Source: Mya arenaria
Lineage: Eukaryota; Mollusca; Bivalvia; Myida; Myidae
Direction of reading: 5' to 3'
Assembly (NCBI RefSeq): GCF_026914265.1
Contig: NC_069134.1
Coordinates: 15,779,205 to 15,843,204 of the forward strand
Length of the DNA: 64,000 nt
The notes below the pieces were generated by a model. It saw only the letters and a list, made by a program, of their open reading frames with translations. It made no database searches and was not told the DNA's origin. This document shows positions 3,196-63,590 of this stretch, piece after piece; the first letter of the stretch is position 1; every line of letters starts with the position of its first letter. A program made the translations under genes and the position numbers.

Positions 3196-3199
3196 AAGC

Positions 3200-5023: not shown

Positions 5024-5314
5024 TGCACCAGTCAATTGTGACCACGGCTCCCCCAGGTCCGGGGTGTACCGGGGTTAGCCGGGGAAATGGGCCGTGTTTT
5101 TACCTTTCAGTGCCGGGTGAATGCGGTGGTTTTGTCTTCGCACAAATATAGCGGGGAATGCGCCTAACCTGGGGTGCGGGTGAATTTGGCAGGGATTTTA
5201 CCATCAGTTCGTCCCCGCAGGGTGGGGATTTTACCCGGGGTTGGCTTGACCGAAAGTCAAAGTCCCCGCTATTCCCCGGACCTGGGGCGGCCGTGGTTAC
5301 AATTTACTGGTGCA
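5024..5314. mobile_element. Harbinger-like MITE, copy 1
   Basis: A 291-bp GC-rich element with terminal inverted repeats: TGCACCAGTCAATTGTGACC at the left, and its inverse, ending TTTACTGGTGCA, at the right. TTA flanks both ends, consistent with the 3-bp target duplication of PIF/Harbinger elements. The interior has repeated CCGGGG words. A shorter relative lies at 24369-24521. No transposase is present. Confidence 0.8.
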
Positions 5315-5503
5315 TTATATTGATTCAGGCTGATGCATCTAAAATGAATTGTAAAACCATATGAAATTTCTGGTCATGCGACTAAACATTTCTCACTCTT
5401 CCTGATAACATATTCTATTTTTAGCCAAAGTACTCTTTCATACTGTCAATTTGCCCAATTATAGTGATAAAACCCTAACCCTTTTTCCCTCTTTGATTGT
5501 TAA

Positions 5504-5946
5504 AGGGACTAGACACCAGATGGTCCAAATATTGGCAAATACAGGATTTTATAAAAACAAACGAGCCAAGAATAGATTGCGTAGGAGGCCGAAAATACAT
5601 AATTTTAGATGGTTAAAATAATAAACGCAACAATAATGTTGCCGTCTCATCAGTGTTTCCCCTTTTAAAAATAGCGCATAATGATTTTCCAGCTCATGTA
5701 ATATCTGTTTAGGAGTACATATAAATATTCGGACGCTATTTTTAAACTTACTGTGATTGACGTTGTAGACAACCCCAGTAAACTTCGAAAAAACTACGAA
5801 AACACTGAGAAAGATGCATGTGTCGTAAGCTATGTGATGCAGCTAGTAAGATTCAATGCGTTGTACACAATGTCAATTTTGTGTAAGTTTTTGACATTTT
5901 TTTTCTCTTTTTGTCTTGTAAATGTATCATCTGGTGTCTAGTCCCT
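5504..5946. mobile_element. TTAA-flanked non-autonomous DNA transposon
   Basis: A 443-bp element beginning AGGGACTAGACACCAGATG and ending with its exact inverse complement, CATCTGGTGTCTAGTCCCT. A TTAA sits on each side (5500-5503 and 5947-5950), the target used by piggyBac-type transposases. The terminal bases are not the usual CCC, so the superfamily is tentative. A decayed relative starts near 21091. It encodes no transposase. Confidence 0.85.
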
Positions 5947-5950
5947 TTAA

Positions 5951-6585
5951 ACTGTTTGTTAAAATTAAGTTTGTCCATCAAATTTTGATGACATTGCATG
6001 GGTAAAATGTGGCATTAATTCATGTAGTGGAATCTAGGATTCAAATTTACATGGCATTTGGAATCTCTTTAATATCTTGAAAACAAAATAGAAAACTTGT
6101 TGGGCATTTGAACCATGGGTGCTTAATATGTTTATCTTTGTTTTACTCATTTTGAATTTGTTGAACATGTTTATTTTATTATCATTTGTCTACCTAGTGC
6201 TTGCTTTACACGCACATGTATATTGGAAATAACGCAACACATGGAAATATCAGTGGTCTTTTCCGTCCTACTTGTACTTCTTTTAATTAATAAAGATCTC
6301 TTTCCAACAAATATTAACATTTTGAACTCTTAAATATAAGAAGTTGTGCAAGAAGGTGTAAAGAAGTAATTGTTTGTCAAAATATTGTATCTGCACTGAA
6401 ACTCAATGTGTATGTAATGTGTTCTATTATTTTAGCATTATCCAGATTTATTTACAGATTTGTTTTATTCTGCCCTTGTTGTTATAAGTGTTATATTTTG
6501 GTACATTAGGGTTTGCTACGCAGAATAAAACCTTAAATCATTGCCTTATCCTAATGCTTGTTGACACCAACTTTAACAGCCAAGG
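5951..6585. other. Intergenic, nothing recognised
   Basis: AT-rich sequence between the TTAA element and the 38-bp array. I see no coding frame, repeat or RNA. Confidence 0.5.
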
Positions 6586-6589
6586 CATA

Positions 6590-10063: not shown

Positions 10064-10166
10064 ATCTATCAATGACCCAAATTCCTTATGCTCCATCTAC
10101 TCTCGCATCATATGTGTTACATAGAGACAAACACTCGGTACAGAGCTCATAACTGTCTCGTACAAA
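10064..10166 (+). promoter_or_regulatory. Conserved 5' flank / putative core promoter of C1q gene A
   Basis: This block immediately before the ATG aligns with the same position in genes B and C: ATGACC, then AATTC, then CATCTACT, then a TA-rich stretch and AGAGAC near the presumed transcript start. The flank is conserved among the paralogs, which suggests that promoters were copied with the genes. The start site itself is inferred. Confidence 0.5.
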
Positions 10167-11000
10167 ATGAAGAAACTCATATCTTCAGTGATTCTTATAG
10201 CTTTTCTAGTTATTTTCGGTGTTATTGCAAGGGAGATCGAGGACAATGCCATTACAAACCTTATTGAGCGTCTCGATGCAAAGGATGCCGTCATTGAAGA
10301 ACTTATTGGAAGAGTGGAACTCCTTGAGAAAACAAATATGAAACAGGTCGAGATAAATGAAGACTTAGAGCGAAGACTGCAACAACTGACTATTTCGACG
10401 CAACAGAAAGACAACCAGAAAAATGCAAACACTGAATTGGAAACAAATAATGAATGGCTTCAAAAGAAAACTGAAACTGACACAGGTGGCGATGAAAATA
10501 AGGAAGATACTAGCGGAATAGCGCATAAACACAAACATGTAACTCTTGGCGACTCTATTTCAAGAAACAGGCGACACGCTTATACAAGAGCAATAGCTTT
10601 CTTCGCTACGGCAACCAATAACTCTGAACACCTGGGTAATGGTCAAACTATCATCTTCGACAATGATATCACAAACGTTGGAAGCGCTTATAACAACCAC
10701 CAAGGAGTCTTTATCGCACCAATCGACGGTATCTATGTGTTTTCCGCAACGCTTTCCTCCTTTCCCAATACTGCTGACCATTTAAAGTGGGTGAAAAATG
10801 GCCAAATTCTTTGCTATCTGTACGTGCACAGTTCAGGATACGATACCTCCGGCAGCACGATTGTGGTTGAACTGAACACCGGTGATGACATTTCCATTCA
10901 AAATATCGATCCCGACATCAAAATTCACGGAGGACAATACACATTTTTCTCCGGGTTTCTCCTTAAAGAAACAGAGACAGAGAGTATTGTTATTGGATAA
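10167..11000 (+). CDS. Secreted coiled-coil C1q-domain protein A
   Basis: A single-exon frame of 277 residues. Residues 1-21 (MKKLISSVILIAFLVIFGVI plus A) form a signal peptide. Residues 22-75 (IEDNAITNLIERL and on to LERRLQQL) form a heptad coiled coil in place of collagen, followed by a polar linker. An RNRR furin-type site lies at 133-136. The C1q/TNF-like jelly roll spans about 139-270, with AIAFFA, QGVFIAPIDGIYVFSA, WVKNGQ, STIVVELNTGDDI and YTFFSGFLL. Bivalve C1q-domain proteins of this design are secreted lectin-like molecules often tied to pathogen recognition; that role is inferred here. Paralogs lie at 16145 and 38788. The ATG is chosen because the signal peptide starts there and it aligns with B. 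Confidence 0.92.
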   Translation: MKKLISSVILIAFLVIFGVIAREIEDNAITNLIERLDAKDAVIEELIGRVELLEKTNMKQVEINEDLERRLQQLTISTQQKDNQKNANTELETNNEWLQKKTETDTGGDENKEDTSGIAHKHKHVTLGDSISRNRRHAYTRAIAFFATATNNSEHLGNGQTIIFDNDITNVGSAYNNHQGVFIAPIDGIYVFSATLSSFPNTADHLKWVKNGQILCYLYVHSSGYDTSGSTIVVELNTGDDISIQNIDPDIKIHGGQYTFFSGFLLKETETESIVIG

Positions 11001-16047: not shown

Positions 16048-16144
16048 CTGTCATTCGAATGACCTGAATTCTTTAAGCGCCATCTACTTATATATATTAT
16101 ATTACACAGAGACGACCACTCAGAACAGATATTAAGGCAGGGCA
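16048..16144 (+). promoter_or_regulatory. Conserved 5' flank / putative core promoter of C1q gene B
   Basis: Very similar to the flank of gene C (CATTCGAATGACC, GAATTCT, CATCTACT, a TATATATATTA tract, then CACAGAGACGA and CACTCAGAACAGAT). The TA-rich tract about 30 bases before CACAGAGACGA could act as a TATA box. Homology with gene C extends farther upstream, to about 15666. Confidence 0.55.
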
Positions 16145-16972
16145 ATGAAAAGACTCATGATTTCAGTGATTCTAGTAGCTTTTCTATTTAACTGTGGTGT
16201 TGACGCAAGGGAGATCGAGGACGCTATCATTGCAAACCTTATTGAGCGCCTCGATGCAAAGGATGCCATCATTGAAGAACTTGTTGGAAGAGTCGAACGC
16301 CTTGAGAAAACAAATATGAAACAGGCCGAGATAAATGTAGACTTAGAACGAAGACTGCAACAACTGACTATTTCGACGCAACAGAAAGACTCCCAGAAAA
16401 ATACAATCACTGAATCTGACAAGCAAAATGACTCGCTTCAAGCGCAAAATGAAACAGACAGAGGAGGCGATGACAATATGGAATACACTAGCGGGATAGT
16501 TCATAAACACAAACGTGTATCTATTGATGATCCTTACATTTCAAGATACAGGCGACACGCTAATACAAGAGCAATAGCTTTTTTCGCGACGCTAACCAAT
16601 GACTCCGAACACCTCGGTGCTGGTGAAAATATTAACTTCGACAATGCCATAACAAACGTTGGAAGCGCTTATCACCAAGGAGTCTTTATAGCGCCCATCA
16701 ACGGTATCTATGTGTTTTCCGCAACGTTATTTTCCTATCCGAATACTGCTGATCGCTTAAAATGGATGAAAAATGGTCAGATGCTTTGCCAACTGTACGT
16801 GCACAATTCAGGCTACGATACCTCCGGCAGCACGATTGTGGTTGAACTGAACACCGGTGATGACATTTCCATTCAAAATATCGATGCCGACACCAAAATT
16901 CTTGGGCATCACTACACATTTTTCTCCGGATTTCTTCTTAAGGAAACAGAAGCCGGGAGTGTTATCGGATAA
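16145..16972 (+). CDS. Secreted coiled-coil C1q-domain protein B
   Basis: A single-exon frame of 275 residues. It has a signal peptide (MKRLMISVILVAFLFNCGVD plus A), a heptad coiled coil at about 22-75, and a polar linker. RYRR at 134-137 is a furin-type site. The C1q domain runs from about 140 to 268, with AIAFFA, GVFIAPINGIYVFSA, WMKNGQ, STIVVELNTGDDI and YTFFSGFLL. Against A it lacks two residues in the loop before QGVF (SAYHQG versus SAYNNHQG). It is closer to C than to A over both gene and flanks. The predicted role is a secreted, coiled-coil-trimerised recognition protein, which is family inference. The ATG starts a complete signal peptide. Confidence 0.92.
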   Translation: MKRLMISVILVAFLFNCGVDAREIEDAIIANLIERLDAKDAIIEELVGRVERLEKTNMKQAEINVDLERRLQQLTISTQQKDSQKNTITESDKQNDSLQAQNETDRGGDDNMEYTSGIVHKHKRVSIDDPYISRYRRHANTRAIAFFATLTNDSEHLGAGENINFDNAITNVGSAYHQGVFIAPINGIYVFSATLFSYPNTADRLKWMKNGQMLCQLYVHNSGYDTSGSTIVVELNTGDDISIQNIDADTKILGHHYTFFSGFLLKETEAGSVIG

Positions 16973-27417: not shown

Positions 27418-30400
27418 TGTATAGTACTTGCTTGTTCTAGTGTGTCCTTTGGTAGTTCTAGTGTGTTCTTTGGTGATTTTAGTGTGTCCTTTGGTAGTTC
27501 TAGTGTGTCCTTTGGTGGTTCTAGTGTGTCCTTTGGTGATTCTAGTGTGTCCTTTGGTGATTCTAGAGTGTCCTTTGGTAGTTCTAGTGTGTCCTTTGGT
27601 GGTTCTAGTGTGTCCTTAGGTGGTTCTAGAGTGTCCTTTGGTGGTTCTAGAGTGCCCTTTGATAGTTGTATTGTGTCCTTTGGTAGTTCTAGAGTGTCCT
27701 TTGGTGGTTCTAGAGTGTCCTTTTGTGGTTCTAGTGTGTCCTTTGGTGGTTCTAGTGTGTCCTTTGGTGGTTCTAGAGTGTCCTTTGGTAGTTCTAGTGT
27801 GTCCTTTGGTGGTTCTAGTGTGTCCTTTGGTAGTTCTAGTGTGTCCTTTGGTGATTCTAGAGTGTCCTTTGGTAGTTCTAGTGTGTCATTTGGTGGTTCT
27901 AGTGTGTCCTTTGGTGGTTCTTGTGTGTCCTTTGGTGGTTCTAGTGTGTCCTTTGGTGGTTCTAGTGTGTCCTTTGGTAGTTCTAGTGTGTCGTGTGTCC
28001 TTTGGTGGTTCTAGTGTGTCTTTTGGTGGTTCTAGTGTGTCCTTTGGTGGTTCTAGTGTGTCCTTTGGTGGTTCTAGTGTGTCCTTTGGTAGTTCTAGTG
28101 TGTCGTGTGTCCTTTGGTGGTTCTAGTGTGTCTTTTGGTGGTTCTAGTGTGTCGTGTGTCCTTTGGTGGTTCTAGTGTGTCCTTTGGTAGTTATAGTGTG
28201 TCCTTTGGTGATTCTAGAGTGTCCTTTGGTGGTTTTTGTGTGTCCTTTGGTAGTTCTAGTGTGTCCTTTGGTGGTTTTAGTGTGTCCTTTGGTGGTTCTA
28301 GAGTGTCCTTTGGTAGTTCTAGTGTGTCCTTTGGTGGTTCTAGTGTGTCCTTTGGTGGTTCTAGAGTGTCCTTCGGTGGTTCTATTGTGTCCTTTGCTGG
28401 TTCTATTTTGTCCTTGTGTAGTTCTAGTGTGTCCTTTGGTAGTTCTAGTGTGTCCTTTGGTGGTTCTTGTGTGTCCTTTGGTGGTTCTAGTGTGTCCTTT
28501 GGTGGTTCTAGTGTGTCCTTTGGTGGTTCTGGTGTGTCCTTTGGTAGTTCTGGTGTGTCGTGTGTCCTTTGGTGGTTCTAGTGTGTCATTTGGTGGTTCT
28601 AGTGTGTCCTTTGGTGGTTCTAGTGTGTCCTTTGGTGGTTCTAGTGTGTCCTTTGGTAGTTCTAGTGTGTCGTGTGTCCTTTGGTGGTTCTAGTGTGTCT
28701 TTTGGTGGTTCTAGTGTGTCGTGTGTCCTTTGGTGGTTCTAGTGTGTCCTTTGGTGGTTATAGTGTGTCCTTGGGTGATTCTAGAGTGTCCTTTGGTGGT
28801 TCTTGTGTGTCCTTTGGTGGTTCTAGTGTGTCCTTTGGTGGTTTTTGTGTGTCCTTTGGTATTCTAGTGTGTCCTATGGTGGTTTTAGTGTGTCCTTTGG
28901 TGGTTCTAGTGTGTCCTTTGGTGGTTATAGTGTGTCTTTTGGTGGTTCTAGTGTGTCCTTTGGTGGTTCTAGTGTGTCCTTTGGTAGTTCTAGTGTGTCC
29001 TTTGGTGATTCTAATGTGTCCTTTGGTAGTTCTAGTGTGTCCTTTGGTGATTCTAATGTGTCATTTGGTAGTTCTAGTGTGTTCTTTGTTGGTTCTAGTG
29101 TGTCCTTTGGTAGTTCTATTGTGTTCTTGTGTAGTTCGAGTGTGTCCTTTGGTAGTTCTATTGTGTCCTTTGCTGGTTCTATTTTGTCCTTGTGTAGTTC
29201 TAGTGTGTCCTTTGGTAGTTCTAGTGTGTCCTTTGGTAGTTTTAGAGTGTCCTTTGGTAGTTCTTGTGTGTCCTTTGATAGTTGTATTGTGTCCTTTGGT
29301 AGTCGTATGATGCCATATGGTAGTCCTTGGATTCCCTCTGGCAGTAGTGGAGTCTCCTTGCGTAGATCTGGGATGTCCGTGTGTAGTCATCGGGTGTTCT
29401 TTGGTAGTTCTGATAAGTCTTTAGGTAGGTACGTGGTGTCATCAGGGTGTCCTTCGATGTTTTTGGATAGTCATGGGGTGTCGATGGGTAGACCTGTGGT
29501 GTCATTGGGTAGTTGTGGAGTGTTCTTGTGTAGTACTAGTGTGTCCCTGGGTATTCCTGATATGTCCTTGGTTAGTCATTGGGTGTCCATGGGTGGTCAT
29601 TGAGCGTTATTTGGTAATTTTGTGTGTTCTTGTGTAGTCATGGGATGTCATTTGGTAGTCATTGAGTGTCTTAAGGTAGTCCTAAGATGTCCGTCGGTAC
29701 TCATCGTGTCCCTAGGTAGTCATTGAGTATCCATAGGAAGTCATGGAAAGTTATTTTGTAGTTATAGTGTGTCCTTGTGCAGTCATCGTATGTCCTTGTG
29801 TAGTACTGGGATGCCTATGGCAATTTTGGATTGTCCTTGCATAGCCCTGGAGTGTCCTTGCGTAGTCATGTGATGTCATGGTGTAGCCATGAGATGTCCT
29901 TGGGTAGTTGTTATGTGTCCTTGGGTAGCTTTGGTGTCCCTTGGTAGTATTGTTTATCCTTGAGTAGTCTTGGGTGTCCTCGGGTAAAACTTGGATATCC
30001 TTGAGTATTTCTGTAGTCTGTGAGTGTCTGTCTGTAGTCATTGGGGTGTCCTTGTGTAGTCTTGGAGTGTCTGTCTGTAGTCATTGGGTTGTCTTTTTGT
30101 AGTCTTGGAGTGTCTGTCTGTAGTCATTGGGGTGTCCTTGTGTAGTCTTGGAGTGTCTGTCTGTAGTCATTTGGGTGTCCTTATGTAGTCTTGGAGTGTC
30201 TATCTGTAGTCATTGGGGGTGTCCTTTGGTAAATCTAGGGTGTCCTTGAGCAGTTTTGTAGTATCTTTGTGTAGACATCGGATGTCATTGGGTAGTTCTT
30301 TGGTGTCCTAGAGTAGTCCTGGTGTGCCCTTTGCTAGTCTGTGTGTCCTTGGGTATTTTTAAGGTAGTTCTTGGGTGGTTCTTGAGTGACGTTGTGTAGT

Positions 30401-31586: not shown

Positions 31587-33055
31587 ATGGTGCACATGGA
31601 AAGGATGATGTTGCATGTGTTGTGGGTTTCGGCCGTGTGGGCGGTGGGCGCCCGTGGATTCCTCTTCCGGCGAACGGACTGCCAGGTGTCGGCCTGGTCG
31701 CCGTGGTCCGAGCCGTTCGGGTTCGGACAGGTGTCCCGAGAACGAGCTATCCTCCGCCACCCGGACAACGGCGGCACCATTTGTCCGCCAGAATTAGAGC
31801 AGATAAAAATTACAGGTACCCACTGGATATATAAATTAAATACATAATAAGTACATTTCAGGTGTCGTTGGATGGCTTTGTAACATTTCAGCGTTTGTGA
31901 AACAAGAATACGCAGAGAACGAAAGGAAGGAATGACGGTTCTTGAAGTAAATCTTACAGTAAAAGCTTTGGTTCCATATGTTGGGAATAAACTTTTATAT
32001 ATTATTATATAAACAATGGAACGAGTGAAAAGTCAGTAAAAACAATCTATTTTAGATGCTTAAAAGCTACACTTGCAGAAGTGATGTTAATTTTCTACAA
32101 AGCATAAACTTATGAGTAAAATACGTATTTTAGGTAAACGAGCCAGCATCCAGTCCACTGCGATATCCATCGCAACGAATTTTATGGTCCAGAACTCGCA
32201 AACAGTTTGTCAGAGGCTCGTCTTCGGGATTTGCTCGTAATCGTAGACGGGTCGGGAAGCATAGGACCCACGAACTTCAATGACGCTAAGTACCAACTGG
32301 CCAGCCTCCTTGGCATGCTGTGTCCCACACCGGACCCCTTTAAGGTTAGTTGGCTAACTTATAGCAGCGGTTAATCGTTTATCATTTACACAGCAAGAAG
32401 AGTTCTTTTGTTCGTTCTTGAAATGTGAGCAAGCCAGTTCTTAACCAACATTTTTACTTTTGTTGCAGGTGTACCAGCGGGCGGCGCTTATTGAGTTTTC
32501 GAGCAATGTTCGGGAGATCTTCGACTTCAATGATAAGGCGAACACACTGTCTGTGCAGCAGGGCGTCAAGGGGATGCCATATTCCGGGGACTCAACGTGC
32601 ACCGCCACCGCATTCAACTACGCCCGTAACACCATGTTCACCGCCGTTAAAAGTAGGCACCGTCTAGCAGCGCCTGCATTTGGTCATTTTTATGTGCATT
32701 TATTGCTCATGTTAGGGATCTTCCTTTAAACTGAATGGAAATAAAAGAAATGTTTATATGTGTAGGTATGCGGAACTTGGACGCGAAACAGGAAGCGCTC
32801 ATCTTGACGGATGGACAGTCAAACTGTGGCGGGGATGCCGTTCGGGTCGCCAAGCTGCTCGACGTGAAGGCCAATGTGCACGGGATAGTTATCGGCAGCC
32901 ACAACACGGCGAACATTCAGGTACTGACAAACTACGTTTCCTCTCCGAAGAACGAGCACCTGATTACGCTGAAGAACGCACGTGAGCTGAGTCAGCTCGT
33001 TGATCTCGTGGAGCAGCAGCTCAAGTCTATCCGCTGTGCCCCCTTCGACATGTGA
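31587..33055 (+). CDS. Secreted TSP1-like / von Willebrand factor A protein
   Basis: A four-exon model: 31587-31815, 32154-32344, 32469-32652 and 32766-33055 (TGA), 297 residues. Residues 1 to about 24 are a signal peptide. A thrombospondin type-1-like segment spans 32-79 (WSPWS, RERAI, NGGTICPP), with fewer cysteines than a full TSP1. A VWA domain spans about 103-290 with the metal-binding DGSGS at 108-112, Thr in GDSTCT at 181-186 and LTDGQSN at 215-221. Such proteins are extracellular adhesion or recognition molecules (family inference). The exon 2 acceptor is placed at 32152-32153 because it keeps frame with both neighbours. The stronger-looking TTTTAG at 32133 would run into a stop. GC content is well above the surroundings. 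Confidence 0.82.
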
Positions 33056-38775: not shown

Positions 38776-38787
38776 ATGAAGTAACTC

Positions 38788-39588
38788 ATGATTTCAGTGA
38801 TTCTTATAACTTTTCTACGTAACTGTGGTGTTGACGCAAGGGAGATCGATGACGATGTCATTGCAAACCTTATTGGGCGTCTCGATGCAAAGGATGCCAT
38901 CATTGAAGAACTTATTGGAAGAGTCGAACGCCTGGAGCAAACAAATATGAAACAGGCCGAGATAAATGCAGACTTAGAACGAAGACTGCAACAAAAGACT
39001 GTTGTGACGCAACAAACAGACTCCCAGAAAGATTCAAACACTGCATCGGACAGACAGAATGAATGGTTTCAAACGAAAACTGAAACTGACAAAGAGGGCG
39101 TTGAAAATATGGAAAACACTAGCGGGATATCTCTTGATGACTCTAATATTTCAAGAAACAGGCGACACGCTAATACAAGAGCAATAGCTTTTTTCGCTAC
39201 GGTAACCAGTAACTCCGAACACCTAGGTGCTGGTCAAAATATCATCTTCGACAATGCCTTAACAAACGTTGGCCACGCTTATAACAGTCACCAAGGAGTC
39301 TTTATCGCACCAATCGACGGTATCTATGTGTTTTCTGCAACACTTTTCTCCTATGCCAATACTGCTGACCATTTAAAATGGGTGAAAAATGGTCAAAATC
39401 TTTGCTATCTGTACGTGCAAAGTTCAGGATACGATACCTCCGGCAGCACGATTGTGGTTGAACTAAACACCGGTGATGACATTTCCATTCAAAATATTGA
39501 TGCCGACTCTAAAATTCTCGGGCAACACTACACATTTTTCTCCGGATTTCTTCTTAAGGAAACAGAAGCAGGGAGTGTCATCGGATAA
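38788..39588 (+). CDS. C1q-domain protein C, start codon shifted
   Basis: The open frame encodes 266 residues: a short hydrophobic N-terminus, a coiled coil at about 18-70, RNRR at 123-126 and a C1q domain at about 128-259 (AIAFFA, QGVFIAPIDGIYVFSA, WVKNGQ, STIVVELNTGDDI, YTFFSGFLL). The ATG homologous to that of B is at 38776 and is followed two codons later by TAA (38782). Translation would have to use the next in-frame ATG (38788), which lacks the basic start of the signal peptide and reads MISVILITFLRNCGVDA. The rest is intact. It may be a functional gene with a weak signal peptide, or a recent pseudogene. Closest relative in the window: B. Confidence 0.8.
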   Translation: MISVILITFLRNCGVDAREIDDDVIANLIGRLDAKDAIIEELIGRVERLEQTNMKQAEINADLERRLQQKTVVTQQTDSQKDSNTASDRQNEWFQTKTETDKEGVENMENTSGISLDDSNISRNRRHANTRAIAFFATVTSNSEHLGAGQNIIFDNALTNVGHAYNSHQGVFIAPIDGIYVFSATLFSYANTADHLKWVKNGQNLCYLYVQSSGYDTSGSTIVVELNTGDDISIQNIDADSKILGQHYTFFSGFLLKETEAGSVIG

Positions 39589-50737: not shown

Positions 50738-51854
50738 CTGAAAGGAGAAATTATTTCAATATAAACACCAGGAAATTGATTGCCAGGTGATAATGTGTAT
50801 GATATTTTTGTAAGTACAGCAAATGAACAACATTGAATGAAGTGACAACCAAGAGACAAAGGTCTCATTTCAAATAAAATCAAAATGCAACATTTTATTT
50901 AGATGAAAATCAAACATATTTAAAGTTTAATACTAGTATTTGAAAACTAAAAACTTCTTTTATTTAAAAAAAAAATATCACAGACTATTGTCACGCAGTT
51001 AAGTACCTGATCATATGACCTTAACTCCAATAAAATACCCCAACTTTAAACCTTATTCCAAAACAAAATGTTAGTAAATGTTTTCAGTACCATCAGTTGC
51101 TTAATTCCTTACAAAGTAGGAAATTAACCCAGACATTGACCAAGATATCCTGCACATGAAATTTGAAATATAAGATTAGAAACAACCGTTAGCCTTATCA
51201 ATAGTGTTAGTATAAATTGAAACAATCTGTTCATAGCATGCAGAATTCCAAGTGACAAACCGGAAGATTTAGATGTTTATAGCCTTTGAATAGATTCTGA
51301 AAACATACACTAAAACCATGAGATAGTGGTTAGGTTATACATGTATGAGATAAAGTATATTTGACAAGGATGTCCACAAAGATGTACGAGATGCACCAAC
51401 ATAGGTTTTATCTTATAATTTATTAGATGTACAAAGGAACTGATATTTCAATTACATAAATTTAACTTAAAAAAAATACGGAAGTCAACAATATGTTTGT
51501 TTGCATACGCTGGAACAGATTATATTCAGCAGTGAGTCAGTCGGGAGTAGTTTTTTGTTTACTTTTTATAGAAATTGAGTAATGATTTATATTGAGCACA
51601 GCAATTGTTACATTTCCTATCACTATCGTGTCTGTCAAAGTTCATGTGGTTGTAATTCATGTAACTATCGAGTTTGTCAGTGCTGGGTTGTCATATAACG
51701 TAAACAGTCGTGTCCATCGGTGTCTCTGTTTTGTACCGGGTATTTCATTTCACTTCGGAGTCTGTTGGGGCTCCCATGGTCTGGTCATATCCAATTTCAA
51801 TGCTCCTTTCGTCAATGTTTACTTCGTTGAATTTCATGAGACTGCCATCACCTG
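50738..51854 (-). other. LMBRD2 intron, part before the array
   Basis: AT-rich, no exon recognised. From about 51595 it becomes less AT-rich and carries loosely spaced GTGTCTGTC-like words, a possible diverged forerunner of the 93-bp unit. Confidence 0.5.
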
Positions 51855-54800
51855 TTGGCCTTTTTCCATCGCACTACCATGTCTGTAAATTTTCCTGTCA
51901 GCATGCATCATAGTTTTGCAGAGTTTGTCTAGTCTCCTGAAGCCCATGTTGGCCTTTTTCATCGCACTACCATGTCTGCTAATTTTCCTATCAGGATGCA
52001 TCATAGTTTTGCCATGTCTGTCTAGTCTCCTGAAGCCCATGTTGGCCTTTTTCATCACACTACCATGTCTGCTAATTTTCCTATCAGCATGCATCATAGT
52101 TTTGCCATGTCTGTCTAGTCTCCTGAAGCCCATGTTGGCCTTTTTCATCGCACTACCATGTCTGCTAATTTTCCTATCAGCATGCATCATAGTTTTGCAG
52201 AGTCTGTCTAGTCTCCTGAAGCCCATGTTGGCCTTTTTCATCGCACTACCATGTCTGTAAATTTTCCTATCAGCATGCATCATAGTTTTGCCATGTCTGT
52301 CTAGTCTCCTGAAGCCCATGTTGGCCTTTTTCATCGCACTATCATGTCTGCTAATTTTCCTATCAGCATGCATCATAGTTTTGCAGAGTCTGTCTAGTCT
52401 CCTGAAGCCCATGTTGGCCTTTTTCATCGCACTAGCATGTCTGCTAATTTTCCTATCAGCATGCATCATAGTTTTGCAGAGTCTGTCTAGTCTCCTGAAG
52501 CCCATGTTGGCCTTTTTCATCGCACTAGCATGTCTGCTAATTTTTCTATCAGCATGCATCATAGTTTTCCCATGTCTGTCTAGTCTCCTGAAGCCCATGT
52601 TGACCTTTTTCATCGTACTAGCATGTCTGCTAATTTTCCTATCAGCATGCATCATAGTTTTGCAGAGTCTGTCTAGTCTCCTGAAGCCCATGTTGGCCTT
52701 TTTCATCACACTACCATGTCTGCTAATTTTCCTATCAGGATGCATCATAGTTTTGCCATGTCTGTCTAGTCTCCTGAAGCCCATGTTGGCCTTTTTCATC
52801 GCACTAGCATGTCTGCTAATTTTCCTATCAGCATGCATCATAGTTTTGCCATGTCTGTCTAGTCTCCTGAAGCCCATGTTGGCCTTTTTCATCGCACTAG
52901 CATGTCTGCTAATTTTCCTATCAGCATGCATCATAGTTTTGCAGAGTCTGTCTAGTCTCCTGAAGTCCATGTTGGCCTTTTTCATCGCACTACCATGTTT
53001 GCTAATTTTCCTATCAGGATGCATCATAGTTTTGCCATGTCTGTCTAGTCTCCTGAAGCCCATGTTGGCCTTTTTCATCGCACTACCATGTCTGCTAATT
53101 TTCCTATCAGCATGCATCATAGTTTTCCCATGTCTGTCTAGTCTCCTGAAGCCCATGTTGGCCTTTTTCATCACACTACCATGTCTGCTAATTTTCCTAT
53201 CAGGATGCATCATAGTTTTGCCATGTCTGTCTAGTCTCCTGAAGCCCATGTTGGCCTTTTTCATCACACTAGCATGTCTGCTAATTTTCCTGTCAGCATG
53301 CATCATAGTTTTGCAGAGTCTGTCTAGTCTCCTGAAGTCAATGTTGGCCTTTTTCATCGCACTACCATGTCTGCTAATTTTCCTATCAGCATGCATCATA
53401 GTTTTGCCATGTCTGTCTAGTCTCCTGAAGCCCATGTTGGCCTTTTTCATCGCACTACCATGTCTGCTAATTTTCCTATCAGCATGCATCATAGTTTTGC
53501 CATGTCTGTCTAGTCTCCTGAAGCCCATGTTGGCCTTTTTCATCGCACTAGCATGTCTGCTAATTTTCCTATCAGCATGCATCATAGTTTTGCAGAGTCT
53601 GTCTAGTCTCCTGAAACCCATGTTGGCCTTTTTCATCGCACTACCATGTCTGCTAATTTTCCTATCAGCATGCATCATAGTTTTCCCATGTCTGTCTAGT
53701 CTCCTGAAGCCCATGTTGGCCTTTTTCATCGCACTAGCATGTCTGCTAATTTTCCTATCAGCATGCATCATAGTTTTGCAGAGTCTGTCTAGTCTCCTGA
53801 AGCCCATGTTGGCCTTTTTCATCACACTACCATGTCTGCTAATTTTCCTATCAGGATGCATCATAGTTTTGTCATGTCTGTCTAGTCTCCTGAAGCCCAT
53901 GTTGGCCTTTTTCATCGCACTAGCATGTCTGCTAATTTTCCTATCAGCATGCATCATAGTTTTGCAGAGTCTGTCTAGTCTCCTGAAACCCATGTTGGCC
54001 TTTTTCATCGCACTAGCATGTCTGCTAATTTTCCTATCAGCATGCATCATAGTTTTGCAGAGTCTGTCTAGTCTCCTGAAGTCCATGTTGGCCTTTTTCA
54101 TCGCACTACCATGTCTGCTAATTTTCCTATCAGGATGCATCATAGTTTTGCAGAGTCTGTCTAGTCTCCTGAAGCCCATGTTGGCCTTTTTCATCGCACT
54201 ACCATGTCTGCTAATTTTCCTATCAGCATGCATCATAGTTTTGCCATGTCTGTCTAGTCTCCTGAAGCCCATGTTGGCCTTTTTCATCGCACTACCATGT
54301 CTGCTAATTTTTCTATCAGCATGCATCATAGTTTTCCCATGTCTGTCTAGTCTCCTGAAGCCCATGTTGGCCTTTTTCATCGCACTACCATGTCTGCTAA
54401 TTTTCCTATCAGCATGCATCATAGTTTTGCAGAGTCTGTCTAGTCTCCTGAAGTCCATGTTGGCCTTTTTCATCGCACTACCATGTCTGCTAATTTTCCT
54501 ATCAGCATGCATCATAGTTTTGCAGAGTCTGTCTAGTCTCCTGAAGCCCATGTTGGCCTTTTTCATCGCACTACCATGTCTGCTAATTTTCCTATCAGCA
54601 TGCATCATAGTTTTGCAGAGTCTGTCTAGTCTCCTGAAGCCCATGTTGGCCTTTTTCATCGCACTACCATGTCTGCTAATTTTCCTGTCAGCATGCATCA
54701 TAGTTTTGCAGAGTCTGTCTAGTCTCCTGAAGCCCATGTTGGCCTTTTTCATCGCACTAGCATGTCTGCTAATTTTCCTGTCAGCATGCATCATAGTTTT

Positions 54801-57800
54801 GCAGAGTCTGTCTAGTCTCCTGAAGCCCATGTTGGCCTTTTTCATCGCACTAGCATGTCTGCTAATTTTCCTATCAGCATGCATCATAGTTTTGCAGAGT
54901 CTGTCTAGTCTCCTGAAGTCATGTTGGCCTTTTTCATCGCACTACCATGTCTGCTAATTTTCCTATCAGGATGCATCATAGTTTTGCCATGTCTGTCTAG
55001 TCTCCTGAAGCCCATGTTGGCCTTTTTCATCGCACTACCATGTCTGCTAATTTTCCTATCAGGATGCATCATAGTTTTGCCATGTCTGTCTAGTCTCCTG
55101 AAGCCCATGTTGGCCTTTTTCATCGCACTAGCATGTCTGCTAATTTTCCTATCAGCATGCATCATAGTTTTGCCATGTCTGTCTAGTCTCCTGAAGCCCA
55201 TGTTGGCCTTTTTCATCGCACTAGCATGTCTGCTAATTTTCCTATCAGGATGCATCATAGTTTTCCCATGTCTGTCTAGTCTCCTGAAGCCCATGTTGGC
55301 CTTTTTCATCACACTAGCATGTCTGCTAATTTTCCTATCAGCATGCATCATAGTTTTGCAGAGTCTGTCTAGTCTCCTGAAGCCCATGTTGGCCTTTTTC
55401 ATCACACTTCCATGTCTGCTAATTTTCCTATCAGCATGCATCATAGTTTTGCCATGTCTGTCTAGTCTCCTGAAGCCCATGTTGGCCTTTTTCATCGCAC
55501 TACCATGTCTGCTAATTTTCCTATCAGCATGCATCATAGTTTTGCAGAGTCTGTCTAGTCTCCTGAAGCCCATGTTGGCCTTTTTCATCGCACTAGCATG
55601 TCTGCTAATTTTCCTATCAGGATGCATCATAGTTTTGCCATGTCTGTCTAGTCTCCTGAAGCCCATGTTGGCCTTTTTCATCGCACTAGCATGTCTGCTA
55701 ATTTTCCTATCAGCATGCATCATAGTTTTGCCATGTCTGTCTAGTCTCCTGAAGCCCATGTTGGCCTTTTTCATCGCACTAGCATGTCTGCTAATTTTCC
55801 TATCAGGATGCATCATAGTTTTGCCATGTCTGTCTAGTCTCCTGAAGCCCATGTTGGCCTTTTTCATCACACTAGCATGTCTGCTAATTTTCCTATCAGG
55901 ATGCATCATAGTTTTCCCATGTCTGTCTAGTCTCCTGAAGCCCATGTTGGCCTTTTTCATCGCACTACCATGTCTGCTAATTTTCCTATCAGCATGCATC
56001 ATAGTTTTGCAGAGTCTGTCTAGTCTCCTGAAGCCCATGTTGGCCTTTTTCATCGCACTACCATGTCTGCTAATTTTCCTATCAGCATGCATCATAGTTT
56101 TGCCATGTCTGTCTAGTCTCCTGAAGCCCATGTTGGCCTTTTTCATCGCACTACCATGTCTGCTAATTTTCCTATCAGCATGCATCATAGTTTTGCAGAG
56201 TCTGTCTAGTCTCCTGAAGCCCATGTTGGCCTTTTTCATCGCACTAGCATGTCTGCTAATTTTCCTATCAGGATGCATCATAGTTTTGCCATGTCTGTCT
56301 AGTCTCCTGAAGCCCATGTTGGCCTTTTTCATCGCACTAGCATGTCTGCTAATTTTCCTATCAGCATGCATCATAGTTTTGCCATGTCTGTCTAGTCTCC
56401 TGAAGCCCATGTTGGCCTTTTTCATCGCACTAGCATGTCTGCTAATTTTCCTATCAGGATGCATCATAGTTTTGCCATGTCTGTCTAGTCTCCTGAAGCC
56501 CATGTTGGCCTTTTTCATCGCACTAGCATGTCTGCTAATTTTCCTATCAGGATGCATCATAGTTTTGCCATGTCTGTCTAGTCTCCTGAAGCCCATGTTG
56601 GCCTTTTTCATCGCACTACCATGTCTGCTAATTTTCCTATCAGCATGCATCATAGTTTTGCAGAGTCTGTCTAGTCTCCTGAAGCCCATGTTGGCCTTTT
56701 TCATCGCACTACCATGTCTGCTAATTTTCCTATCAGCATGCATCATAGTTTTCCCATGTCTGTCTAGTCTCCTGAAGCCCATGTTGGCCTTTTTCATCGC
56801 ACTACCATGTCTGCTAATTTTCCTATCAGCATGCATCATAGTTTTGCCATGTCTGTCTAGTCTCCTGAAGCCCATGTTGGCCTTTTTCATCGCACTACCA
56901 TGTCTGCTAATTTTCCTATCAGCATGCATCATAGTTTTGCAGAGTCTGTCTAGTCTCCTGAAGCCCATGTTGGCCTTTTTCATCGCACTAGCATGTCTGC
57001 TAATTTTCCTATCAGGATGCATCATAGTTTTGCCATGTCTGTCTAGTCTCCTGAAGCCCATGTTGGCCTTTTTCATCGCACTAGCATGTCTGCTAATTTT
57101 CCTATCAGCATGCATCATAGTTTTGCCATGTCTGTCTAGTCTCCTGAAGCCCATGTTGGCCTTTTTCATCGCACTAGCATGTCTGCTAATTTTCCTATCA
57201 GGATGCATCATAGTTTTGCCATGTCTGTCTAGTCTCCTGAAGCCCATGTTGGCCTTTTTCATCGCACTAGCATGTCTGCTAATTTTCCTATCAGGATGCA
57301 TCATAGTTTTCCCATGTCTGTCTAGTCTCCTGAAGCCCATGTTGGCCTTTTTCATCGCACTACCATGTCTGCTAATTTTCCTATCAGCATGCATCATAGT
57401 TTTGCAGAGTCTGTCTAGTCTCCTGAAGCCCATGTTGGCCTTTTTCATCGCACTACCATGTCTGCTAATTTTCCTATCAGCATGCATCATAGTTTTGCCA
57501 TGTCTGTCTAGTCTCCTGAAGCCCATGTTGGCCTTTTTCATCGCACTACCATGTCTGCTAATTTTCCTATCAGCATGCATCATAGTTTTGCAGAGTCTGT
57601 CTAGTCTCCTGAAGCCCATGTTGGCCTTTTTCATCGCACTAGCATGTCTGCTAATTTTCCTATCAGGATGCATCATAGTTTTGCCATGTCTGTCTAGTCT
57701 CCTGAAGCCCATGTTGGCCTTTTTCATCGCACTAGCATGTCTGCTAATTTTCCTATCAGCATGCATCATAGTTTTGCCATGTCTGTCTAGTCTCCTGAAG

Positions 57801-60800
57801 CCCATGTTGGCCTTTTTCATCGCACTAGCATGTCTGCTAATTTTCCTATCAGGATGCATCATAGTTTTGCCATGTCTGTCTAGTCTCCTGAAGCCCATGT
57901 TGGCCTTTTTCATCGCACTAGCATGTCTGCTAATTTTCCTATCAGGATGCATCATAGTTTTGCCATGTCTGTCTAGTCTCCTGAAGCCCATGTTGGCCTT
58001 TTTCATCGCACTACCATGTCTGCTAATTTTCCTATCAGCATGCATCATAGTTTTGCAGAGTCTGTCTAGTCTCCTGAAGCCCATGTTGGCCTTTTTCATC
58101 GCACTACCATGTCTGCTAATTTTCCTATCAGCATGCATCATAGTTTTCCCATGTCTGTCTAGTCTCCTGAAGCCCATGTTGGCCTTTTTCATCGCACTAC
58201 CATGTCTGCTAATTTTCCTATCAGCATGCATCATAGTTTTGCAGAGTCTGTCTAGTCTCCTGAAGCCCATGTTGGCCTTTTTCATCGCACTAGCATGTCT
58301 GCTAATTTTCCTATCAGCATGCATCATAGTTTTCCCATGTCTGTCTAGTCTCCTGAAGCCCATGTTGGCCTTTTTCATCGCACTACCATGTCTGCTAATT
58401 TTCCTATCAGCATGCATCATAGTTTTGCAGAGTCTGTCTAGTCTCCTGAAGCCCATGTTGGCCTTTTTCATCGCACTAGCATGTCTGCTAATTTTCCTAT
58501 CAGCATGCATCATAGTTTTGCAGAGTCTGTCTAGTCTCCTGAAGCCCATGTTGGCCTTTTTCATCGCACTACCATGTCTGCTAATTTTCCTATCAGCATG
58601 CATCATAGTTTTCCCATGTCTGTCTAGTCTCCTGAAGCCCATGTTGGTCTTTTTCATCGCACTAGCATGTCTGCTAATTTTCCTATCAGCATGCATCATA
58701 GTTTTGCAGAGTCTGTCTAGTCTCCTGAAGCCCATGTTGGCCTTTTTCATCACACTACCATGTCTGCTAATTTTCCTATCAGGATGCATCATAGTTTTGT
58801 CATGTCTGTCTAGTCTCCTGAAGCCCATGTTGGCCTTTTTCATCGCACTAGCATGTCTGCTAATTTTCCTATCAGCATGCATCATAGTTTTGCAGAGTCT
58901 GTCTAGTCTCCTGAAACCCATGTTGGCCTTTTTCATCGCACTAGCATGTCTGCTAATTTTCCTATCAGCATGCATCATAGTTTTGCAGAGTCTGTCTAGT
59001 CTCCTGAAGTCCATGTTGGCCTTTTTCATCGCACTACCATGTCTGCTAATTTTCCTATCAGGATGCATCATAGTTTTGCAGAGTCTGTCTAGTCTCCTGA
59101 AGCCCATGTTGGCCTTTTTCATCGCACTACCATGTCTGCTAATTTTCCTATCAGCATGCATCATAGTTTTGCAGAGTCTGTCTAGTCTCCTGAAGCCCAT
59201 GTTGGCCTTTTTCATCGCACTACCATGTCTGCTAATTTTTCTATCAGCATGCATCATAGTTTTCCCATGTCTGTCTAGTCTCCTGAAGCCCATGTTGGCC
59301 TTTTTCATCGCACTACCATGTCTGCTAATTTTCCTATCAGCATGCATCATAGTTTTGCAGAGTCTGTCTAGTCTCCTGAAGTCCATGTTGGCCTTTTTCA
59401 TCGCACTACCATGTCTGCTAATTTTCCTATCAGCATGCATCATAGTTTTGCAGAGTCTGTCTAGTCTCCTGAAGCCCATGTTGGCCTTTTTCATCGCACT
59501 ACCATGTCTGCTAATTTTCCTATCAGCATGCATCATAGTTTTGCAGAGTCTGTCTAGTCTCCTGAAGCCCATGTTGGCCTTTTTCATCGCACTACCATGT
59601 CTGCTAATTTTCCTGTCAGCATGCATCATAGTTTTGCAGAGTCTGTCTAGTCTCCTGAAGCCCATGTTGGCCTTTTTCATCGCACTAGCATGTCTGCTAA
59701 TTTTCCTGTCAGCATGCATCATAGTTTTGCAGAGTCTGTCTAGTCTCCTGAAGCCCATGTTGGCCTTTTTCATCGCACTAGCATGTCTGCTAATTTTCCT
59801 ATCAGCATGCATCATAGTTTTGCAGAGTCTGTCTAGTCTCCTGAAGTCATGTTGGCCTTTTTCATCGCACTACCATGTCTGCTAATTTTCCTATCAGGAT
59901 GCATCATAGTTTTGCCATGTCTGTCTAGTCTCCTGAAGCCCATGTTGGCCTTTTTCATCGCACTACCATGTCTGCTAATTTTCCTATCAGGATGCATCAT
60001 AGTTTTGCCATGTCTGTCTAGTCTCCTGAAGCCCATGTTGGCCTTTTTCATCGCACTAGCATGTCTGCTAATTTTCCTATCAGCATGCATCATAGTTTTG
60101 CAGAGTCTGTCTAGTCTCCTGAAGCCCATGTTGGCCTTTTTCATCGCACTAGCATGTCTGCTAATTTTCCTATCAGGATGCATCATAGTTTTCCCATGTC
60201 TGTCTAGTCTCCTGAAGCCCATGTTGGCCTTTTTCATCGCACTACCATGTCTGCTAATTTTCCTATCAGCATGCATCATAGTTTTGCAGAGTCTGTCTAG
60301 TCTCCTGAAGCCCATGTTGGCCTTTTTCATCCCACTTCCATGTCTGCTAATTTTCCTATCAGCATGCATCATAGTTTTGCCATGTCTGTCTAGTCTCCTG
60401 AAGCCCATGTTGGCCTTTTTCATCGCACTACCATGTCTGCTAATTTTCCTATCAGCATGCATCATAGTTTTGCAGAGTCTGTCTAGTCTCCTGAAGCCCA
60501 TGTTGGCCTTTTTCATCGCACTAGCATGTCTGCTAATTTTCCTATCAGGATGCATCATAGTTTTGCCATGTCTGTCTAGTCTCCTGAAGCCCATGTTGGC
60601 CTTTTTCATCGCACTAGCATGTCTGCTAATTTTCCTATCAGCATGCATCATAGTTTTGCCATGTCTGTCTAGTCTCCTGAAGCCCATGTTGGCCTTTTTC
60701 ATCGCACTAGCATGTCTGCTAATTTTCCTATCAGGATGCATCATAGTTTTGCCATGTCTGTCTAGTCTCCTGAAGCCCATGTTGGCCTTTTTCATCGCAC

Positions 60801-62815
60801 TAGCATGTCTGCTAATTTTCCTATCAGGATGCATCATAGTTTTCCCATGTCTGTCTAGTCTCCTGAAGCCCATGTTGGCCTTTTTCATCGCACTACCATG
60901 TCTGCTAATTTTCCTATCAGCATGCATCATAGTTTTGCAGAGTCTGTCTAGTCTCCTGAAGCCCATGTTGGCCTTTTTCATCGCACTACCATGTCTGCTA
61001 ATTTTCCTATCAGCATGCATCATAGTTTTGCCATGTCTGTCTAGTCTCCTGAAGCCCATGTTGGCCTTTTTCATCGCACTACCATGTCTGCTAATTTTCC
61101 TATCAGCATGCATCATAGTTTTGCAGAGTCTGTCTAGTCTCCTGAAGCCCATGTTGGCCTTTTTCATCGCACTAGCATGTCTGCTAATTTTCCTATCAGG
61201 ATGCATCATAGTTTTGCCATGTCTGTCTAGTCTCCTGAAGCCCATGTTGGCCTTTTTCATCGCACTAGCATGTCTGCTAATTTTCCTATCAGCATGCATC
61301 ATAGTTTTGCCATGTCTGTCTAGTCTCCTGAAGCCCATGTTGGCCTTTTTCATCGCACTAGCATGTCTGCTAATTTTCCTATCAGGATGCATCATAGTTT
61401 TGCCATGTCTGTCTAGTCTCCTGAAGCCCATGTTGGCCTTTTTCATCGCACTAGCATGTCTGCTAATTTTCCTATCAGGATGCATCATAGTTTTGCCATG
61501 TCTGTCTAGTCTCCTGAAGCCCATGTTGGCCTTTTTCATCGCACTACCATGTCTGCTAATTTTCCTATCAGCATGCATCATAGTTTTGCAGAGTCTGTCT
61601 AGTCTCCTGAAGCCCATGTTGGCCTTTTTCATCGCACTACCATGTCTGCTAATTTTCCTATCAGCATGCATCATAGTTTTCCCATGTCTGTCTAGTCTCC
61701 TGAAGCCCATGTTGGCCTTTTTCATCACACTACCATGTCTGCTAATTTTCCTATCAGCATGCATCATAGTTTTGCAGAGTCTGTCTAGTCTCCTGAAGCC
61801 CATGTTGGCCTTTTTCATCGCACTAGCATGTCTGCTAATTTTCCTATCAGCATGCATCATAGTTTTCCCATGTCTGTCTAGTCTCCTGAAGCCCATGTTG
61901 GCCTTTTTCATCGCACTACCATGTCTGCTAATTTTCCTATCAGCATGCATCATAGTTTTGCAGAGTCTGTCTAGTCTCCTGAAGCCCATGTTGGCCTTTT
62001 TCATCGCACTAGCATGTCTGCTAATTTTCCTATCAGGATGCATCATAGTTTTGCCATGTCTGTCTAGTCTCCTGAAGCCCATGTTGGCCTTTTTCATCGC
62101 ACTACCATGTCTGCTAATTTTCCTATCAGCATGCATCATAGTTTTGCAGAGTCTGTCTAGTCTCCTGAAGCCCATGTTGGCCTTTTTCATCGCACTACCA
62201 TGTCTGCTAATTTTCCTATCAGCATGCATCATAGTTTTCCCATGTCTGTCTAGTCTCCTGAAGCCCATGTTGGCCTTTTTCATCGCACTACCATGTCTGC
62301 TAATTTTCCTATCAGCATGCATCATAGTTTTGCAGAGTCTGTCTAGTCTCCTGAAGCCCATGTTGGCCTTTTTCATCGCACTAGCATGTCTGCTAATTTT
62401 CCTATCAGGATGCATCATAGTTTTGCCATGTCTGTCTAGTCTCCTGAAGCCCATGTTGGCCTTTTTCATCGCACTACCATGTCTGCTAATTTTCCTATCA
62501 GCATGCATCATAGTTTTGCCATGTCTGTCTAGTCTCCTGAAGCCCATGTTGGCCTTTTTCATCGCACTACCATGTCTGCTAATTTTCCTATCAGCATGCA
62601 TCATAGTTTTGCAGAGTCTGTCTAGTCTCCTGAAGCCCATGTTGGCCTTTTTCATCGCACTAGCATGTCTGCTAATTTTCTTATCAGCATGCATCATAGT
62701 TTTCCCATGTCTGTCTAGTCTCCTGAAGCCCATGTTGGCCTTTTTCATCGCACTAGCATGTCTGCTAATTTTCCTATCAGCATGCATCATAGTTTTGCAG
62801 AGTCTGTCTAGTCTC
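51855..62815. repeat. 93-bp tandem array, about 118 units, higher-order structure
   Basis: Each 93-bp unit contains GTCTGTCTAGTCTCCTGAAG, CCATGTTGGCCTTTTTCATC and TGTCTGCTAATTTTCCTATC. The main variable sites are ACCATG/AGCATG, CAGCATGC/CAGGATGC and GCAGAGT/GCCATGT/CCCATGT. Because 93 = 31 x 3, one - frame (MMHADRKISRHGSAMKKANM plus GFRRLDRHGKT) and one + frame (MLAFFIALPCLLIFLSACII) are open throughout, up to 1636 and 1654 codons. Each is broken by the same 1-nt deletion (GAAGTCATG for GAAGCCCATG) at 54915 and 59843. Most likely an intronic satellite. Neither translation resembles a known protein. Confidence 0.95.
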
Positions 62816-63590
62816 AAGCCACCGTCAGCATTTTTCATATCACTGCTGTGTTAGTTGATGCTTGGATCATCGTCCTCAGTGTACTTTGTCATTTTTGTAT
62901 TCTTGTATTCGTCCATTACACTTCTTTCATTTGACACTGACTCTATGTTTTTAATCATCTGTTAAGTTCCATGATAAAATATTATTGTCTGCAGATGATA
63001 ATAGTTTTCAATTTAAGCTTTCAGAAGTAAATGTATATATTTGCTTCAACTTTAATTTTAAGGCTAACCGTAGAATACAAGTTTAAATGGAACTTGTCAT
63101 GCATATCATATAAATTGTGTACAATATCACTCATTTCTTTTATATTGATGAGCACAATTTCGCACAAATAAATAATCTTACTTGAGGGGTCAAAACTATT
63201 TTTTAATCATTTGGTCAAGCCACTGCCAACAAACAAGGATGGACTCAAGGTACAATATGAGATTATGTCAGATTCTTAAAGATGCACTCTTACTTCCATA
63301 AGTATATGATTTACAACAATTAATACCATTATTTTTAATATACCAAAAAAGGATGAATAAATGTATAAAACAATAGTTTTTTGAAAGAAAGGTGCGAAAA
63401 CATGGTATTTCTACCTTATGAAATGATATTATATCACAGTAAATCATTTAGCACTCACCAATCATTTAATATTTTTGCATTTTTAGCTAGGTTTATCACT
63501 GATAATAAATGTTTGGTACACATGTGTATGTATTTATTTTGAATAGGAGTGTCACTTTAAGAAAATGTGAATTCACAGTATTAATAGACA
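62816..63590. other. Flank of the array, nothing recognised
   Basis: AT-rich. The first 50 bases (AAGCCACCGTCAGCATTTTT) are unrelated to the unit. No LMBRD2 exon could be found on the - strand. Confidence 0.5.

What the first reader, a model, noticed from the sequence alone, without database searches (positions are those of the whole stretch)
51855..62815. 11-kb satellite whose unit is open on both strands
About 118 units of 93 bp keep one frame open on each strand for 3-5 kb at a stretch. The variable sites change residues in both translations (His-Gly to Leu-Cys, Ala to Pro, Gly to Ala), so codon-level constraint is not obvious. This could be chance in a multiple-of-three unit. A transcribed repeat protein is possible but unproven.
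Basis: partly seen in the sequence, partly recalled or inferred. Interest (0 to 1): 0.7.

Follow-up and report, generated by a model that had tools for sequence, protein, structure and literature searches.

The report
Ordinary clam minisatellite, chance open frames
An 11-kb stretch of near-identical 93-base repeats, probably in a clam genome, looks like a protein gene on both strands, but the evidence fits a non-coding repeat array whose open frames come from its unit length and base composition.

Summary
Window 51853-62815 is 118 units of 93 bp, about 96% alike. One frame per strand is open in stretches of 889-1654 aa (+) and 1001-1636 aa (-), broken by two copies of one 1-bp deletion, a 1-bp insertion in unit 0 and a TAA on + in units 0 and 4.

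The array is a single-locus minisatellite. Its unit is a 42+51 dimer of a dispersed family with ~42-bp units; decayed family units flank it on the left. It expanded by block duplications.

The open frames need no coding function. Shuffled units are open on both strands in 24-26% of cases. Substitutions show no codon-position or synonymous bias. Across nine family arrays 6 of 39 unit-length changes keep frame. No family register is open in all nine arrays, though the window's + register is open in seven and its - register in six. A weak wobble-like bias between family consensuses faded as members were added and stays inconclusive.

The genome is probably Mya arenaria (inferred). Ordinary: a new member of a known kind.

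The parts
51853..62815 (.). 93-bp tandem array, 118 units, single locus in the genome
51612..51844 (.). about 5.5 decayed units of the ~42-bp family flanking the array on the left (older remnant)
   Evidence: score 144 against a maximum of 38 in 60 shuffles
62833..62969 (.). possible decayed family units on the right; not significant
   Evidence: score 44 against a maximum of 46 in 60 shuffles
53527..56780 (.). units 18-52, first copy of a 53-unit-offset block duplication
   Evidence: score 30.0, null maximum 6.4; 12 differences over 35 units
58455..61708 (.). units 71-105, second copy of that block
   Evidence: unit starts
54829..54920 (.). unit 32 with the 1-bp deletion that ends ORFs on both strands
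59757..59848 (.). unit 85 with the duplicated copy of the same 1-bp deletion
54921..59885 (+). longest + ORF, 1654 aa, hydrophobic 31-residue period; judged spurious
   Evidence: tests
54905..59815 (-). longest - ORF, 1636 aa, basic 31-residue period; judged spurious
   Evidence: tests

Best explanation
A non-coding minisatellite. An old array of a dispersed ~42-bp repeat family decayed at this locus (shown: left-flank remnants). A 42-bp unit (A) and a neighbouring unit with a 9-bp insertion (B, 51 bp) became a 93-bp dimer (alignment shown, order of events inferred). The dimer was amplified and homogenised by repeated block duplication, most likely through unequal exchange or replication-repair slippage (blocks shown, mechanism inferred). 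Because 93 is a multiple of three and the + strand is poor in A (18%) and rich in T (38%), stops are scarce. One frame per strand happened to be open in the founder unit, and homogenisation copied that over 11 kb until a frameshift intervened. No product is needed.
For: Array anatomy. Single locus. Dimer 42+51 of a family read at 25 other places. Decayed family units in the left flank. Block duplications at offsets of 53, 38 and 15 units, scores 30.0, 19.4 and 15.8 against a null maximum of 6.4 in 200 unit-order shuffles. P(open on both strands) 0.24-0.26 in shuffled units. 25 distinct substitutions fall 12/6/7 by + codon position (P 0.29); synonymous 10 of 25 on + (expected 0.30, P 0.18) and 6 of 25 on - (expected 0.21, P 0.43). 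Eight other arrays: 112/99/107 distinct substitutions by position mod 3, P 0.67 (includes L046, 9/12/12, whose 41-bp period has no fixed register). Unit-length changes keep frame in 6 of 39 cases over nine arrays, 0 of 2 in this array (not independent, some are copies of one event). The window's + register is closed in L044 (stops in 149 of 150 units) and its - register in L045 (170 of 177) and L049 (13 of 17). No Rfam match at gathering scores.
Against: Between family consensuses, the shared wobble position of the two open registers is more variable. Seven DNA-found members: P 0.025, pN/pS 0.54 (+) and 0.47 (-), column-permutation P 0.015 each. Larger sets: 18 members P 0.046; 12 non-redundant representatives P 0.099, pN/pS 0.62 (P 0.14) and 0.47 (P 0.023); 12 members without loci that came through the protein search P 0.21, pN/pS 0.63 (P 0.16) and 0.52 (P 0.07). 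Frequency-weighted divergence within arrays is highest at that position in 5 of 9 arrays (L009, L044, L047, L048a, L049). Of the eight arrays with a multiple-of-three period, the + register is open in seven and the - register in six; + is open in the consensus of 18 of 18 42-column members. L045 keeps the + register open over 2428 aa and 177 of 177 units at 42 bp; L044 keeps the - register open over 1052 aa and 150 of 154 units at 39 bp. Periods are multiples of three at 23 of the 25 other places (41 bp in L046 and L066), though most simply share the inherited 42. Four Pfam models exceed their whole-protein cut-offs on translated array pieces (PF04911 on +; PF20185, PF14947, PF03642 on -), but no single stretch of any of them passes; I read these as repeat artefacts.
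Confidence: 0.92

Rival explanations
1. The array encodes a repetitive protein on the - strand (basic 31-residue period, two Arg-His-Gly motifs per unit), a member of a family of 14-residue-repeat proteins.
For: - ORFs of 1001-1636 aa. Related L009, L044 and L047 arrays are open in the same register, and L009 and L047 share a similar 14-residue pattern with the window. pN/pS 0.47 between 12 representatives, P 0.023.
Against: The same register has stops in most units of L045 (170 of 177) and L049 (13 of 17). No synonymous excess within this array, 6 of 25 against 0.21 expected. Unit-length changes mostly break frame. The array is split by two frameshifts. Eight nearby ORFs (4 in the window, 4 of 15 in the next 9.9 kb) had no Pfam match, so no coding exon was identified beside it.
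Confidence: 0.035
2. The array encodes a hydrophobic, membrane-like repeat protein on the + strand.
For: + ORFs of 889-1654 aa. The register is open in 18 of 18 42-column family consensuses and over 2428 aa in L045.
Against: In-frame TAA in units 0 and 4 plus frameshifts. Closed in L044 (149 of 150 units). pN/pS 0.62 with P 0.14. Register +0 is also open in 16 of those 18 consensuses, as expected of a T-rich, A-poor strand. More than 1000 unbroken hydrophobic residues are implausible as a protein (inference).
Confidence: 0.025
3. A transcribed non-coding satellite RNA or a structural chromosome element acts here.
For: None direct. The - strand unit folds slightly better than shuffles (z -1.98, 10 of 200 shuffles at least as stable).
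Against: + strand z 0.68; no Rfam match at gathering scores; the 93-bp unit occurs at one locus only.
Confidence: 0.02

Closest known systems
Dispersed satDNA-like tandem arrays of bivalves, as in Crassostrea gigas (PMC7492417: abstract, outline and section 5 read; PMC8268682: passages read)
   Same: Many related tandem arrays scattered over chromosomes of a bivalve genome rather than in one heterochromatic block.
   Different: The oyster monomers in PMC7492417 are mostly 140-180 bp in short arrays carried by Helentron elements. Here the unit is ~42 bp (93 in the window) and other arrays read reach 7.4 kb (L045), with hits on C2 spanning about 13.6 kb. No common flank was found over the eight arrays compared; one pair (L009, L044) shares a common dispersed repeat about 236 bases away.
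Minisatellites with higher-order and block-duplication structure (general class, recalled)
   Same: Unit of tens of bases, near-identical core, decayed left edge, block-wise duplications.
   Different: Nothing of principle; the multiple-of-three period gives long fortuitous ORFs.
Coding minisatellites, such as mucin-type repeats (recalled)
   Same: In-frame tandem units with long open frames.
   Different: No synonymous bias within the array, mostly frame-breaking length changes, no register open in all relatives.

Membership tests
non-coding minisatellite | tandem head-to-tail units of about 10-100 bp | tested here: met
   93 bp, 118 units
non-coding minisatellite | homogenisation and block duplication within the array | tested here: met
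non-coding minisatellite | no codon-level constraint within the array | tested here: met
   power is limited, 25 distinct changes
dispersed ~42-bp repeat family of this genome | unit aligns with the family consensus in register | tested here: met
   (42+51 dimer); flank remnants
Helentron-carried bivalve satDNA | array enclosed by conserved element flanks | tested here: inconclusive
   no flank common to the eight arrays compared. Exception: L009 and L044 share, on the same side and in the same orientation, a 68-70% match starting 236-239 bases from the array; it is a very common dispersed repeat (134 matches from 40 scored of 3023 candidates)
coding repeat protein | excess synonymous change in the open frame | tested here: inconclusive
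   not seen within the array; weak and fading between family members
coding repeat protein | length changes keep frame | tested here: not met
   6 of 39 net unit-length changes are multiples of three; but L044 and L045 keep length in 150 of 154 and 177 of 177 units
coding repeat protein | transcript and peptide | not testable with these tools
   no RNA or peptide data held
ribozyme-bearing satellite (hammerhead type) | ribozyme motif in the unit | tested here: not met
   no Rfam match at gathering scores on either strand

The most novel reading that the evidence does not exclude
The ~42-bp family began as, or partly still is, a 14-residue-repeat coding sequence. Its arrays would be relics of a dispersed repeat-protein family, which would explain the residual wobble-like bias between consensuses, the periods that are multiples of three at 23 of 25 other places, and arrays such as L044 and L045 that keep one frame for kilobases.
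Probability: 0.06. Interest if true: 0.6.

Novelty: new member of a known kind. Interest (0 to 1): 0.22.

Why it matters
It is a worked example of how a homogenised multiple-of-three minisatellite yields kilobase ORFs on both strands, which can mislead gene callers in repeat-rich molluscan genomes. It also exposes a dispersed minisatellite family with ~42-bp units and shows how one locus can renew an old array by amplifying a dimer. The coding alternative, if shown, would matter more.

Tried and rejected
Rejected: coding on either strand (see rivals); known RNA or ribozyme. A mobile-element carrier was looked for and not found, with the one shared repeat near L009 and L044 traced to a common dispersed repeat.

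Own errors corrected: the first indel tally (13 of 160 frame-keeping; its P value) was inflated because a non-repeat insert inside L044 was aligned as units. The filtered tally is 6 of 39. The 144/139/137 tally of distinct substitutions is likewise replaced by 112/99/107. In one search the two linked changes at unit positions 33-34 were scored singly; together they make TAA, so the + frame is not stop-free.

Ascertainment: the wobble test on 13 members (P 0.005) included loci found with a protein query and is not used as evidence. In one search, L055, L059 and L061 were first met through that protein search and then also hit by a DNA query made from L059; L072-L074 came from the same DNA query. 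The cleanest set is the 12 members without that group except L049 (P 0.21). Rows dropped: L060 (no tandem row); L063 and L064 (20 and 18 of 42 identical, within the shuffle range); L066, L067 and L069 (gapped consensuses); L056, L057, L058 and L062 (not put into the 42-column set). L044 and L046 were in the nine-member test (P 0.023) but not in the 42-column sets. Loci L050-L054, fetched for short hits, showed no family array by TRF.

A control set of 80 random regions was drawn but not fetched. The survey of 23 arrays in held DNA (period mod 3 = 0, 1, 2 in 11, 7, 5) is weighted by family loci and is not an unbiased control. Papers: the listings (titles and abstract starts) mention no such array; (Mya arenaria + tandem repeat + satellite DNA) listed two papers, seen as listing only. 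PMC10663159 was seen as two passages. I make no claim that the family is unpublished.

Full report
Setting. The window lies at C13:15779205-15843204 of a genome of 1,216,080,610 bases in 18 contigs. Contig C18 has 17,947 bases. This fits the published Mya arenaria assembly, 1.22 Gb in 17 scaffolds matching 17 chromosomes (PMC10663159, passages), plus a mitochondrial genome. The species is therefore probably the soft-shell clam, but that is inferred, not shown. The window carries three C1q-domain ORFs and a split VWA domain; the nearest of these ends at 39588, about 12 kb from the array.

The array. TRF places it at 51853-62815 with period 93, 117.9 copies and 96% matches. Aligned unit by unit, it has 118 units with 35 distinct sequences. 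A few variants account for most of the difference: C to G at position 24 (53 units), C to G at position 49 (34 units), G to C at position 65 (18 units), G to A at position 18 (10 units) and a linked three-base change at positions 67-69 (53 units). A 33-base probe with up to 3 mismatches finds 118 places in the whole genome, all on one strand. That equals the number of units, and the places listed all lie in this array (the list was cut). So this is a single-locus minisatellite.

Growth. At unit level the array holds block duplications at offsets of 53 units (units 18-52, 12 differences in 35 units), 38 units (17 units, 1 difference) and 15 units (14 units, 1 difference). Scores are 30.0, 19.4 and 15.8, against a maximum of 6.4 in 200 shuffles of unit order. 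The 53-unit duplication copied a 1-bp deletion (units 32 and 85), and those two sites are where the long ORFs on both strands break. Assembly error was not excluded.

Origin. A DNA search found a 65-69% identical array 29.5 Mb away on the same contig whose TRF unit is 42 bp. Searches from it and from its relatives led to family arrays that I read at 25 other places on 12 contigs; by the tool's own statement counts are lower bounds. Their periods are 42 at 21 places, 41 in L046 and L066, 39 in L044 and 36 in L069. The window's 93-bp unit splits into a 42-bp part and a 51-bp part, and each aligns to the family unit, the second with a 9-bp insertion. The 230 bases left of the array (51612-51844) are decayed family units: score 144 against a maximum of 38 in 60 shuffles. 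The right side is not significant (44 against 46). I conclude that a dimer amplified inside an older array of the same family. The eight arrays whose flanks I compared have no common flank. One pair, L009 and L044, shares on the same side and in the same orientation a 68-70% match starting 236-239 bases from the array; it is a very common dispersed repeat (134 matches from 40 scored of 3023 candidates). So I find no carrier transposon, but do not exclude an old one.

Are the open frames meaningful? Shuffling the unit gives at least one open frame on both strands in 24% (mononucleotide) and 26% (dinucleotide) of 5000 trials each. The + strand is open in 72-86%, because it is poor in A. With 25 substitutions the chance of no stop on either strand is 0.28-0.53. 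The + frame in fact has a TAA in units 0 and 4, made by two linked changes. Distinct substitutions fall 12/6/7 on + codon positions 1/2/3 (P 0.29). Synonymous changes are 10 of 25 on + (expected 0.30, P 0.18) and 6 of 25 on - (expected 0.21, P 0.43) (expectation at transition weight 2). These counts treat distinct changes as independent events, which homogenisation makes only approximate.

Family tests. In eight other family arrays distinct substitutions are 112/99/107 by position mod 3 (P 0.67; L046, 9/12/12, has no fixed register because its period is 41). Across nine arrays 6 of 39 net unit-length changes keep frame; some are copies of one event, such as the two in the window. By register, leaving out L046: the window's + register is open in seven of eight arrays and closed in L044 (stops in 149 of 150 units); its - register is open in six of eight and closed in L045 (170 of 177) and L049 (13 of 17); a third register, +0, is open in seven of eight and closed in the window (115 of 115). 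Open here means open in the consensus and in most units. So no register is open in all, and one not open in the window is as widely open as the one that is. Long ORFs occur elsewhere: L045 is open for 2428 aa on its T-rich strand, by its stop count the same register as the window's + frame, and for 895 aa on the other strand in a register that is closed in the window; L044 is open for 1077 and 1052 aa.

Evidence pulling the other way. Among seven 42-column consensuses found by DNA search, the wobble position shared by the window's two frames is more variable (0.476 against 0.344 and 0.306, P 0.025), with pN/pS 0.54 (+) and 0.47 (-), column-permutation P 0.015 each. With more members it weakens: 18 members P 0.046; 12 non-redundant representatives P 0.099, with pN/pS 0.62 (P 0.14) and 0.47 (P 0.023); 12 members without the group reached through the protein search P 0.21, with 0.63 (P 0.16) and 0.52 (P 0.07). 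Frequency-weighted divergence within arrays is highest at that position in 5 of 9 arrays. Several tests were run, so I read this as inconclusive. A coding ancestor of the family remains possible; present coding here is not supported.

Other mechanisms. There is no Rfam match at gathering scores. The unit RNA folds no better than shuffles on + (z 0.68) and marginally better on - (z -1.98). On 248-residue translated pieces of the array, four Pfam models exceed their whole-protein cut-offs (PF04911 on +; PF20185, PF14947 and PF03642 on -), but no single stretch passes for any of them; I take them as repeat artefacts.

Verdict. It is a locally amplified minisatellite of a dispersed family, and the ORFs on both strands are best explained as chance preserved by homogenisation.

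Noticed in passing
window 10125-11000, 16136-16972, 38785-39588 (+): Three intact-looking ORFs with a C-terminal C1q domain (Pfam E 1e-18, 8e-16, 5.9e-19), a local cluster of C1q-domain genes.
   Followed up: partly
window 32445-33052 (+): Two ORF pieces matching successive parts of a VWA domain, probably exons of one gene.
   Followed up: no
window 6601-9538 (+): A 38-bp array of 77.7 copies with an 822-aa open stretch although 38 is not a multiple of three, a further example of a fortuitous array ORF.
   Followed up: partly
L045 (C2:18918500-18928400), 1310-8762: A 42-bp family array of 177 scored units with no unit-length change and a 2428-aa open frame on one strand, the strongest candidate if any family member is coding.
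   Followed up: partly
L044 (C10:46319000-46328900), about units 82-101 of the array: A non-repeat block of roughly 0.8 kb inside a 39-bp family array, with array units in the same order before and after it (units 6-18 and 103-115), suggesting a large duplication around an insert.
   Followed up: no
C15:43824500 and C15:43905700: Two closely similar family arrays 81 kb apart, probably a segmental duplication.
   Followed up: no
L009 5979-6524 (C13): A 182-bp tandem repeat (3 copies) that belongs to a very common dispersed repeat of this genome.
   Followed up: partly
window 27434-30309 and L011 1-3273: Further long tandem arrays (21-bp, 43-bp and 28-bp units) near this locus; the region is rich in minisatellites.
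   Followed up: no
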